This document shows positions 42,610-45,363 of a stretch of DNA of 64,000 nt, in pieces. The position numbers and the translations under genes were made by a program. The stretch spans positions 124,001 through 188,000 of the forward strand of contig DATNPK010000089.1 of the NCBI GenBank assembly GCA_036703275.1. Reading direction: 5' to 3'. This DNA is from Coleofasciculaceae cyanobacterium (lineage in GTDB: Bacteria > Cyanobacteriota > Cyanobacteriia > Cyanobacteriales > Xenococcaceae). Each line of letters begins with the position of its first letter. The stretch's first letter is position 1. The notes below the pieces were generated by a model. The model was not told where the DNA came from. It ran no database searches and saw only the letters and a program-made list of their open reading frames with translations.

Positions 42610-43973
42610 ATGGGTTTAATCATTGCTGGCGATCGCTCTGGAGTAGGCAAAACAACCGTTACCCTAGCCATACTGGCTTATCTGACAGCACAAAGCGATC
42701 GCGTACAGTCATTCAAAGTGGGGCCAGATTACATCGATCCCATGTTTCATCGTGCTGTAACAGGTTTACCCTGTCGCAACTTAGATCCTGTACTAACTTC
42801 CCCAAGCTATGTCCAAGAGTGTTTTAATCGTCACGCACAAGGTGCTGACTGGGTAGTAATCGAAGGTGTAATGGGATTATTTGACGGTATTAGCAACCCC
42901 AATAAATCAGAATCTTTAAATGACTATGGCAGCACTGCTCATATTGCCAGAATATTAGATTTACCCGTAGTGTTAGTTTTAGACTGTTCTAGCTTATCGA
43001 CTTCGATCGCTGCGATCGCCTATGGTTATACCAACATAGATCCTCAAGTAAATATTGCCGGGGTAATTTTAAATAAGGTGGCAAGCGATCGTCATTTAGA
43101 GCTATTAGAAACGGCATTAGCTAGTATTAAAATGCCAATTGTAGGAGTTTTAAGACGCGACGCGGCAGTAACTATCCCAGATCGCCATTTAGGTTTAGTT
43201 CCCTTCGCCGAACTTCCTAGTATTAGTGGTATTTTTGCCCAATTAGCCGATTTAGCTAAAACATCATTTAATTGGGATAAACTTGGTTCTCTTCTGGGTC
43301 AATCATCACCCAGTCACTTACTCACCCAGTCACTTACTCACCAATCAAAATCGCAGTAGCTCAAGATCGAGCCTTTAATTTTTATTACCAAGACAATCTA
43401 GATATCTTGACTGAACTAGGTGCAGAACTTATATTTTGGAGTCCGCTTCAAGATCACAATCTCCCCGATGAGATCCAAGGACTATACTTTGGTGGTGGTT
43501 TTCCCGAAGTATTTGCTCAACAGTTAGCTGACAACAAAAACGTTTTAAAACAGCTTAAACAGATTATTCAAGCTGGCATTCCTACTTATGCTGAATGTGG
43601 TGGCTTAATGTATCTCTGCAAACAGCTAATAGATTTTAAGCAACAAAGTTGGTCGATGGTAGGAGTTATTCCCAGCAATGTGACTATGCAAGCAAAATTA
43701 ACTTTAGGCTATCGACAAGCGATCGCGCTACAGGATAGTTCTTTAATTTCAGCACAACAAATAGTTCAAGGACACGAGTTTCATCGCTCTAAATTAATCA
43801 CACATCCAGAACATCCTCAATGGCAGCTACAGGGCTTTCATCAGTCTAGTCCTCAATTAACAGAAGGCTGGAATATCAATCGACTACACGCTTCCTATCT
43901 CCATATCCACTGGGGGGGCGCAAAATATCTGGCTCAAAGATTTATTCAAAGTTGCCGAAATTTTCCAATTTAG
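42610..43973 (+). pseudogene. cobB: Cobyrinate a,c-diamide synthase, frame broken inside a 16-bp tandem repeat
   Basis: Amidates cobyrinate in B12 synthesis. The N-terminal ATPase half (GDRSGVGKTTVTLA P-loop, FKVGPDYIDPMFH, VIEGVMGLFDG) runs to a stop at 43357. The C-terminal glutaminase half (YAECGGLMYLC with its catalytic Cys, then LHIHWGG) continues in another frame, with normal family sequence visible again from 43341 (IKIAVAQDRAFNFYY). The break lies in the linker, in a perfect 16-bp repeat at 43306-43342. Removing both units or adding a third would restore one frame. It may be a real mutation, phase variation or an assembly collapse. Confidence 0.8.
43306..43342 (+). repeat. 16-bp tandem repeat in the cobB linker, 2.3 copies
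   Basis: The unit TCACCCAGTCACTTAC occurs twice perfectly, followed by a five-base partial copy (TCACC). Sixteen is not a multiple of three, so each copy gained or lost shifts the frame of cobB. Zero or three copies give an intact protein. Confidence 0.95.
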
Positions 43974-44014
43974 TTATATTGATTGGAGATACATAGTTAT
44001 CAAATTAGCCATTT

Positions 44015-44270
44015 AGGGATACAGGAGGTGATGCCCATGACAGAATATAGTAGTAACATGGGTCTCCTAGTTGATGATAGCCAGCTGTGTGCTGGGGCTG
44101 TTCTTTAAGCAGTCGCATCTTGAACTTCTTCGGAAGTAACTAGGTAGACATTGTTGGAGTTCCTTCCAGCAGTTAGGTTTCGACTAAGAGACCCTCTAGA
44201 CCGCCCTCATGAGTAATAACCATTGCAGCTTTGCTGTTTACCGTTATGGACTTGTGGGGGCGGATAGTTT
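44015..44270 (+). ncRNA. Candidate structured RNA between cobB and cysK
   Basis: About 250 bases fold into a row of stems: AGGAG/CTCCT enclosing CCCATG/CATGGG (44023-44068), AGCCAGC/GCTGGGGCT (44079-44099), ACTTC-UUCG-GAAGT (44124-44137), GGTTTC/GAGACC (44176-44193), and a 14-bp stem 44201-44214/44250-44263 with wobble pairs enclosing ATAAC/GTTAT and CAGC/GCTG. The C(UUCG)G tetraloop and compensating G-U pairs argue for a functional RNA. It is not recognisably tmRNA, RNase P RNA, SRP RNA or a known riboswitch; 6S RNA is possible but I cannot confirm it. It could also be the cysK leader. Confidence 0.5.
44037..44108 (+). CDS. Possible 23-residue leader peptide within the structured RNA
   Basis: An ATG at 44037 lies eight bases after AGGAGG, part of a ten-base perfect complement to the 16S rRNA 3' end (AGGAGGTGAT, 44023-44032). 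The frame (MTEYSSNMG ... CAGAVL) ends with TAA at 44106. The ribosome site itself is paired in the first stem, so translation would be structure-controlled. Whether it is translated is unknown. Confidence 0.25.
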   Translation: MTEYSSNMGLLVDDSQLCAGAVL

Positions 44271-44409
44271 TTGAGCAAATATATATTTCTGGTTTATTTC
44301 GGCAATCTCTACAGGAAATAAAGCTGAGAATTATAAACTATTAACAAATTGCTCGCTCGAGCAGTCAATAAGCAAGCAAAATAAATAATACCGATTACTT
44401 TTGCGTCCT

Positions 44410-45363
44410 ATGAAAATTGCGAAAAACGTTACCGAACTGGTAGGCAGAACTCCTTTAGTACAGCTCAATCGTATTCCCCAAGCAGAAGGATGTATGGCAA
44501 AAATAATAGTAAAATTAGAAGGAATGAATCCTGCTGCCTCTGTTAAAGACCGCATTGGGGTAAATATGATTAACGCAGCCGAAGCCGAAGGGACAATTAC
44601 CCCTGGTAAAACAATTTTAGTTGAACCAACATCAGGTAATACAGGAATTGCGCTGGCAATGGCAGCAGCAGCCAAAGGTTACAAGCTGATTTTAACTATG
44701 CCCGAAACCATGAATAAAGAACGACGGCTGATGTTAAAAGCTTATGGCGCACAGTTAGAACTGACTCCTGGCAGCGAGGGAATGGCAGGATGTATCAGGA
44801 AGGCACAGGAAATTAGCGAAAATGTACCCGATGCCTATATGTTACAGCAGTTTAATAACCCTGCTAATCCAGAAATTCATAAAAGCACTACCGCTGAAGA
44901 AGTTTGGGCAGATACTGATGGCAAGGTAGACATAATTGTGGCGGGAGTTGGTACAGGAGGCACAATTACAGGTTTAGCAGAAGTCCTCAAAAGATACAAG
45001 CCAGAATTAAAAGCGATCGCGGTTGAACCAATCGGCAGCCCGATCTTGTCAGGAGGACAACCAGGTTCTCATAAAATTCTGGGAATTGGTGCAGGCTTTG
45101 TCCCAGAAGTATTAAAAATAGATCTAATTGATGAAGTGATTACTGTTACCGATGATGAGGCGATCGATTTTGGTCGTCGCTTAGCCCGAGAAGAAGGCTT
45201 GTTATCAGGTATTTCGACTGGTGCAGCTCTTGCAGCAGCAGTCAAGGTGGCACAAAAACCAGAGAATAAAGATAAGCTAATTGTGATGATTCAGCCCAGC
45301 TTTGGTGAACGTTATCTTAGTACACCATTGTTTGCCGATCTCGAACAGCCTGTCTTTAATTAA
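44410..45363 (+). CDS. cysK: Cysteine synthase A
   Basis: PLP enzyme that makes cysteine from O-acetylserine and sulfide. The PLP lysine is Lys46 in SVKDRIG, with the PTSGNTG substrate loop and the phosphate-binding GTGGTITG loop intact. The ATG at 44410 ([20 protein letters not shown]) matches the family start better than a TTG at 44401. Length is 317 residues. A hairpin with T run follows. The long structured leader upstream is unusual. Confidence 0.95.

What the first reader, a model, noticed from the sequence alone, without database searches (positions are those of the whole stretch)
44015..44270. Candidate structured RNA with a buried perfect Shine-Dalgarno and a tiny frame
Seen: five consecutive stems, one with a C(UUCG)G tetraloop, a long 14-bp stem with wobble pairs, and a ten-base perfect anti-SD complement paired inside the first stem, spaced eight bases from an ATG of a 23-codon frame. 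I could not match it to a known RNA class. Inference: a small RNA or a translation-coupled leader of cysK (for example for cysteine or sulfur sensing).
Basis: partly seen in the sequence, partly recalled or inferred. Interest (0 to 1): 0.75.

Follow-up and report, generated by a model that had tools for sequence, protein, structure and literature searches.

The report
Ancient cyanobacterial mini-gene RNA
This is a small gene found in most of the photosynthetic cyanobacteria sampled, making an RNA of roughly 285 letters with a very strong ribosome landing site, a tiny coding frame of about 23 codons and a long conserved hairpin-like rod; it very probably belongs to a little-studied RNA called ncl0160, its job is unknown, and in many species it sits next to a photosystem II gene.

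Summary
The finding is real but is not a cysK leader. It is a free-standing RNA gene, about 43987-44272: promoter-like site, a 10-base Shine-Dalgarno (SD) site fully complementary to the genome's own 16S 3' end, a 23-codon frame (44037-44108), a rod-like fold and an intrinsic terminator. Matches occur in 95 of 100 relatives, 162 of 194 class genomes and, with a model of the short variant, 92 of 151 genomes of one small-genome family. Rod and terminator covary: 295 double-change cells against 75 in shuffles. No Rfam family matches; 6S RNA lies elsewhere. cysK follows in 18 of 258 loci; psbD precedes in 130 and cobB in 41. The frame ends at codon 17, 23 or 24 in 225 of 225 unique sequences (one exception outside that set), but the peptide is only weakly constrained. 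By description (PMC4734099) it is almost certainly ncl0160, a conserved cyanobacterial sRNA with a predicted 23-25 aa peptide; its sequence could not be compared. Not found described elsewhere: the covarying rod, fixed SD-AUG-rod spacing, 17-codon variant and psbD linkage. Best mechanism (inferred): ribosome loading and translation open and close the rod.

The parts
43952..43980 (+). Predicted SigA-type promoter: TTGCCG (43952-43957), 17 nt, TATATT (43975-43980); overlaps the end of the cobB frame
   Evidence: Sequence. In relatives an extended -10 (TRYRYTANNNT) occurs in 166 of 235 unique upstream regions against 13.4 in mononucleotide shuffles; the window itself does not match that stricter motif. 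A full -35/-10 pattern is only weakly enriched: 100 of 235 against 58.
43987..44272 (+). Predicted transcript (about 286 nt; start within a few nt)
44023..44032 (+). AGGAGGTGAT, complete complement of the 16S rRNA 3' end
   Evidence: Own 16S ends GGATCACCTCCTTAT. AGGAGGTGAT in 190 of 225 unique sequences; GGAGG to start codon is 8 nt in 223 of 225.
44037..44108 (+). 23-codon frame MTEYSSNMGLLVDDSQLCAGAVL, stop TAA
   Evidence: Frame closes at codon 17, 23 or 24 in 225 of 225 unique sequences and in 17 of the 19 loci that one search missed; weak excess of synonymous changes.
44060..44064 (+). Rod helix 1, 5' strand GGGUC (partner 44190-44194 GACCC)
   Evidence: 98.4% of cells paired, C-G to U-A in 6 of 75 sequences.
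44068..44074 (+). Rod helix 2, 5' strand UAGUUGA (partner 44180-44186)
   Evidence: All 7 pairs show changes on both sides; 90.4% of cells paired.
44080..44086 (+). Rod helix 3, 5' strand GCCAGCU (partners 44171-44174 and 44176-44178)
   Evidence: 98.3% of cells paired, 4 of 7 pairs change on both sides.
44091..44105 (+). Rod helix 4, 5' strand (11 of these 15 bases paired; partner within 44157-44170)
   Evidence: 97.3% of cells paired, 7 of 11 pairs change on both sides.
44109..44156 (+). Variable insert at the tip of the rod, holding the ACUUC(UUCG)GAAGU hairpin 44124-44137
   Evidence: Length and sequence vary across relatives.
44157..44194 (+). Conserved 3' half of the rod (GAGTTCCTTCCAGCAGTTAGGTTTCGACTAAGAGACCC)
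44196..44272 (+). Intrinsic terminator: CUA, an asymmetric GA/A inner loop, a stem of at least 11 conserved pairs, then UAG-UUUUU
   Evidence: 96.7% of cells paired, 7 of 14 pairs change on both sides; inner loop GA/A in 56 and CA/A in 16 of 75.

Best explanation
A free-standing small-RNA gene of cyanobacteria, very probably the family called ncl0160. SHOWN (by sequence comparison): a conserved gene with a promoter-like site, a near-invariant perfect ribosome-binding site, a mini frame of 17-24 codons, a covarying rod whose 5' strand is the second half of the frame, and an intrinsic terminator; the rod starts 23 nt (less often 26, rarely 32) after the first base of the start codon, just past the expected footprint of an initiating ribosome (footprint recalled). 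INFERRED: ribosomes load on the site without having to melt the rod and translate the frame; translation opens the rod, which refolds behind the ribosome or when initiation stops. RNA state and translation are thus coupled, so the RNA acts as a translation-gated riboregulator or dual-function RNA. The peptide's exact sequence matters less than its being translated. Widespread linkage to a psbD gene suggests a link to photosystem II D2 supply.
For: Range: 95/100 relatives, 162/194 class genomes and 101/110 genera, 92/151 in one small-genome family. Structure: 96.3% of 3293 cells paired, 295 double-change cells against 75.1 +/- 13.2 in shuffles, 31-49% paired in slid controls; the short variant 97.9% paired, 35 double-change cells against 10.7. 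SD 10/10 complement, spacing 8 nt in 223/225, start-to-rod 23 or 26 nt in 225/225, stop at codon 17, 23 or 24 in 225/225. Stop-free over the same stretch: frame +1 33/165, frame +2 0/165. Tree-based synonymous fraction in frame 0 is 0.344 against 0.279 expected; the other frames lie below expectation. psbD C-terminal motif upstream in 130/258 loci, confirmed as TIGR01152 in 5 of 5 tested from 5 family labels. The literature describes ncl0160 with the same frame length, ribosome-binding site, stop usage and range.
Against: No expression or translation data were available here; ncl0160's own sequence could not be compared. Over 75 sequences the SD is unpaired with mean probability only 0.55 (0.58 with the rod enforced) and the AUG 0.45 (0.50), so the site is not fully open in the predictions. 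Codons 2-8 show no third-position excess (81 against 89 and 96 changes), and the excess in codons 9-23 could come from rod pairing. In the window the single-sequence optimum is not the rod (7.2 kcal/mol better); across 75 sequences the rod lies within 2 kcal/mol in 34 and within 5 in 52. One relative (L046) has a shifted 34-codon frame. In the window's own genus the gene follows cobB, not psbD, so a psbD link is not obligatory. No target or bound protein is known.
Confidence: 0.53

Rival explanations
1. Plain microprotein gene: the 23-24 aa peptide is the product, and the rod is a stabilising structure of its mRNA.
For: Frame kept in 225/225 and in 17 of 19 further loci; synonymous excess in frame 0 only; [quoted passage not shown]
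Against: The Ser codons 4 and 5 are held as AGT (150 and 164 of 165), which is constraint on nucleotides. 357 of 544 single-change codons on the tree are nonsynonymous. The frame stops at codon 17 in 19 of 225, and in the small-genome family the conserved GCCGGCTG motif is read in another frame, giving an unrelated end.
Confidence: 0.26
2. Ribosome-docking RNA: its main job is to bind 30S subunits by the perfect SD and AUG (sequestration or sensing of free subunits); the short frame is incidental.
For: SD complement and spacing near invariant; in the window the SD is mostly exposed when the rod forms (0.91); the rod starts beyond the expected initiation footprint.
Against: Family-wide the SD is only about 0.58 unpaired with the rod. 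A stop is kept at one of three positions, and frame 0 has a weak synonymous excess, so reading beyond initiation seems selected. Abundance unknown.
Confidence: 0.12
3. Base-pairing sRNA whose 3' rod strand is the targeting region, with the frame as a minor addition.
For: The 3' strand GAGTTCCTTCCGGCAGTC is highly conserved; sRNAs with small frames are known.
Against: That strand is paired in the rod (97-98% of cells in helices 3 and 4), and its conservation is explained by pairing; no target search was made.
Confidence: 0.07
4. 5' leader or attenuator of cysK.
For: The cysK ATG (44410) lies about 140 nt after the U run in the window, and cysK is found next to the element in 12 of the 13 same-genus loci L001-L013.
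Against: cysK found downstream in 18 of 258 loci; conserved terminator before it.
Confidence: 0.02

Closest known systems
ncl0160 (Synechocystis PCC 6803 sRNA; homologs in PMC4734099, of which passages and section 15 were read)
   Same: Intergenic cyanobacterial sRNA with 83 homologs identified (89 genomes compared); conserved 23-25 aa frame with a ribosome-binding site; mostly ATG, a few GTG; stops 47 TAA, 34 TAG, 2 TGA (here 103, 60, 2 of 165).
   Different: The text read gives no sequence, and its supplement, which holds a peptide logo and a predicted structure of the Nostoc homolog (Figure S2), could not be read, so identity is by description. That study left out the marine Prochlorococcus/Synechococcus lineage; the text seen reports no covariation, no psbD linkage ('psbD' 0 times) and no 17-codon form.
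Yfr6 of Prochlorococcus (PMC1242208, PMC2518516, passages read)
   Same: RNA of about 240 nt with a short frame; compared by its authors with RNAIII.
   Different: 33-codon frame starting at nt 97, described in Prochlorococcus; sequence not compared here.
Dual-function sRNAs such as SgrS/SgrT and RNAIII/delta-haemolysin (named in PMC2518516)
   Same: One small transcript with both structure and a tiny frame.
   Different: Here the second half of the frame is itself one strand of the conserved rod; no base-pairing target is known.
6S RNA (RF00013)
   Same: Rod-like bacterial RNA of similar size (recalled).
   Different: The genome's 6S RNA is a separate gene on contig C25.

Membership tests
ncl0160 | Conserved 23-25 codon frame in an intergenic sRNA | tested here: met
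   23 or 24 codons in 206 of 225 unique sequences; 17 in the other 19, 13 of them from family f41.
ncl0160 | Ribosome-binding site before every start; mostly ATG, few GTG | tested here: met
   GGAGG in every one, but the search required it; 222 ATG, 3 GTG.
ncl0160 | Stop usage TAA > TAG >> TGA (47/34/2) | tested here: met
   103/60/2 of 165.
ncl0160 | Sequence identity with the Synechocystis or Nostoc ncl0160 transcript | not testable with these tools
   Sequence not in the text read; supplementary look-ups were 0.
ncl0160 | Transcribed as a discrete RNA | not testable with these tools
   No RNA data.
6S RNA | Match to RF00013 | tested here: not met
   No Rfam match at this locus; RF00013 lies on contig C25.
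Any Rfam 15 family, riboswitches included | Score at or above gathering cut-off | tested here: not met
   0 matches in the whole window, 0 in 20 relatives, 0 in 9 deep relatives; in 10 more only 2 tRNAs elsewhere in the loci. Lax search of 43700-44500: one chance-level snoRNA match, E 3.1.
tmRNA | ARAGORN tmRNA call | tested here: not met
   0 genes in 20 loci of relatives holding the element; the window itself was not run.
Dual-function sRNA | Frame translated in cells | not testable with these tools
   Only conservation evidence.
Dual-function sRNA | Separate regulatory function of the RNA | not tested
   Structure is conserved; no function known.
cysK leader | Same-strand position upstream of cysK across relatives | tested here: not met
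   18 of 258 loci, searched to 1.4 kb after the SD where sequence was held.

The most novel reading that the evidence does not exclude
An ancient ribosome-gated RNA of the oxygenic lineage: translation of a mini frame whose peptide hardly matters switches a conserved rod between open and closed, so that the RNA reports free ribosomes or initiation rate and tunes photosystem II D2 supply from beside psbD.
Probability: 0.18. Interest if true: 0.85.

Novelty: new member of a known kind. Interest (0 to 1): 0.6.

Why it matters
An RNA gene kept in most sampled cyanobacterial genera has no match in Rfam 15 as used here, and the term 'ncl0160' occurs in 1 held paper. A covarying rod interlocked with a mini frame, a perfect anti-SD complement and widespread linkage to psbD make testable predictions in easily manipulated strains, and a covariance model would let genomes be annotated.

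Tried and rejected
Rejected: 6S RNA, riboswitches and other Rfam classes, tmRNA, cysK leader. A viral or plasmid origin found no support (0 matches in viral contigs with one exact pattern; none for the window's copy in phages, or plasmids). A conserved SD-burying hairpin was considered and not supported. Chance was rejected by shuffles and slides.

Led nowhere: literature searches for the peptide and motif letters (0 papers), for psbD2 with ncRNA (0 papers), for other cyanobacterial ncRNA or small-protein reports and for a Synechocystis Ribo-seq report (the best 12 of 65 papers listed, none opened for it). PMC5126843 (passages) lists Synechocystis microproteins; no 23-25 aa entry showed in the passages seen. 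PMC2662882, PMC3219970 and PMC13421787 (passages) did not mention the element there.

Rows dropped: 9 of 207 loci lacked both landmarks; alignment A1 holds 75 of 198 elements after thinning at 80% identity and leaving out L040, L046 and L082; A2 holds 42 of the 78 thinned ones; one search used 258 of 277 eligible loci (225 unique). The 19 missed loci were read afterwards: 17 end at codon 17, 23 or 24; L046 has a shifted frame of 34 codons; L138 is not a true copy. Two of them (L257, L278) have the rod 32 nt after the start, still in frame. The search pattern fixes the SD and ATG, so loci L091-L207 are biased towards both, and required GGAGG.

Full report
What is there. The stretch 44015-44270 is the body of a free-standing RNA gene that starts about 43987 and ends at the U run at 44272 (start and end predicted). 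From 5' to 3' it has a sigma-70-like promoter at 43952-43980; AGGAGGTGAT at 44023-44032, the exact complement of the genome's 16S 3' end; ATG at 44037 and a 23-codon frame to 44108; a conserved rod with a variable insert; and an intrinsic terminator. Its view that the SD is buried is not borne out: in the window the SD is unpaired with probability 0.65, or 0.91 with the rod enforced, while the AUG is the part that tends to pair. Over 75 relatives the SD means are 0.55 and 0.58, so exposure is partial in the family.

How widespread. BLAST-level matches occur in 95 of 100 relatives. A sequence-only model of the 5' part (R1) finds it in 137 of 386 phylum genomes; all 137 lie in the window's own class, but the answer does not say how many of the 386 lie outside it. 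In a class sample it is in 162 of 194 genomes and 101 of 110 genera. Misses include some of the 1.7-1.9 Mb genomes of f41, genus g94 of f39 and scattered others.

Structure. On 75 sequences thinned at 80% identity (A1), RNAalifold predicts 47 pairs, 26 with a change on both sides. Counted for the 44 pairs of rod and terminator: 96.3% of cells paired; 295 double-change cells against 75.1 +/- 13.2 in shuffles; slid controls 31-49% paired. Helix 1 is GGGUC/GACCC. Helix 2 varies in all seven pairs. Helices 3 and 4 carry the conserved GCCGGCU...GCCGGGG and CCGGCAGUC strands. The terminator has a conserved asymmetric inner loop, GA/A in 56 and CA/A in 16 of 75, just before UAG-UUUUU. The f41 version keeps the plan with other letters: GGGUC/GACCC, an inner rod, and a terminator with the same GA/A loop (CGA-GA-GCCCC.../...GGGGC-A-UCG). 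There 97.9% of cells pair, but all 8 pairs that change on both sides lie in the terminator, so its rod rests on conservation, not on covariation within f41. As a single sequence the window prefers another fold by 7.2 kcal/mol; over 75 sequences the rod costs a median of 2.3 kcal/mol.

The frame. In 225 unique sequences (258 of 277 loci) the gap from GGAGG to the start codon is 8 nt in 223, the start codon is ATG in 222 and GTG in 3, the distance to the rod is 23 or 26 nt, and the stop comes at codon 17 (19), 23 (189) or 24 (17). Here 'codon n' means n codons before the stop. Of the 19 loci missed by that script, 17 obey the same rule, two of them with the rod at 32 nt; L046 has a shifted 34-codon frame, and L138 is not a true copy. 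The other two frames are open over the same stretch in 33 of 165 and 0 of 165. On a tree of 168 sequences the synonymous fraction in frame 0 is 0.344 (187 of 544) against 0.279 expected; frames 1 and 2 lie below expectation. The third-position excess is confined to codons 9-23, which also pair in the rod; codons 2-8 show none. Ser codons 4 and 5 are held as AGT, and in f41 the shared GCCGGCTG motif is read in another frame. So being translated looks more conserved than the peptide.

Context. Of 258 loci, 130 have a psbD C-terminal motif upstream on the same strand (median 205 nt before the SD), 41 have cobB upstream and 18 have cysK downstream. Five of the psbD frames, from loci labelled f33, f41, f36, f37 and f13, match TIGR01152 above its cut-off; in 12 loci examined the psbD stop lies 94-405 nt before the element, too little for psbC in between. 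Reading locus origins, psbD-linked copies come from 22 family labels, so the linkage is probably old and was lost in the window's own lineage, where the gene follows cobB. No tree of the families was made to test this. The loci were not sampled evenly, so 130 of 258 is not a frequency for the class.

What it is called. PMC4734099 (passages and section 15) describes ncl0160, first seen in Synechocystis, as an sRNA widely distributed in heterocystous and other strains, with a conserved 23-25 aa frame, a ribosome-binding site and stops 47 TAA / 34 TAG / 2 TGA in 83 homologs; here 103/60/2 of 165. I take the two as one family (about 0.9), by description only. It is the only held paper with that name. 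The authors favour a translated peptide and show a predicted structure in a supplementary figure that I could not read. I found no description of the covarying rod, the psbD link or the short form in what I could read; that statement rests, several of them listings only.

How it may work. Shown: gene anatomy, structure, spacing and range. Inferred: a ribosome can initiate without melting the rod, because the rod starts about 23 nt after the start codon, beyond the expected leading edge of an initiating ribosome (recalled, not from a call). Translation must then open the rod, since codons 9-23 are its 5' strand. This couples translation to RNA state. Whether the output is the peptide, the freed 3' strand, a bound protein or ribosome titration is open; I give translation gating about 0.53 including the anatomy (lowered slightly on checking, because SD exposure is only partial over the family), a plain microprotein 0.26, and ribosome docking 0.12.

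Noticed in passing
window 42610-43973: cobB is split into two frames; a 16-bp direct repeat (CACCCAGTCACTTACT twice, from 43307) lies at the break. In 23 of the 24 other loci in which both parts were found they are in the same frame by position (L020 also shows an offset). Natural mutation or assembly error.
   Followed up: partly
upstream of the element in many draft genomes, e.g. L096, L106, L113: Contigs often end about 300 nt upstream of the element, within psbD, as expected if psbD has a second near-identical copy.
   Followed up: partly
G000:C8, C17, C18: The window's own genome gave psbD only as pieces, two of them at contig ends and one with a TAG inside the matched stretch.
   Followed up: no
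L258 and L271: psbD stop only 94 and 134 nt before the element's SD: the tightest links among the 12 examined, worth testing for read-through transcription.
   Followed up: no
G212:C1:2023817-2023974: A second, weaker copy of the short variant in one f41 genome (E 1.5e-15), about 5 kb from the first.
   Followed up: no
L138: Pattern hit in a contig labelled Anaerolineales MAG; the rod and terminator landmarks were not found, so probably a chance match.
   Followed up: partly
genus g94 of family f39: No match in the 7 g94 genomes shown among the misses (12 further misses not listed), although another genus of f39 (G604) has one: a possible loss worth checking.
   Followed up: no
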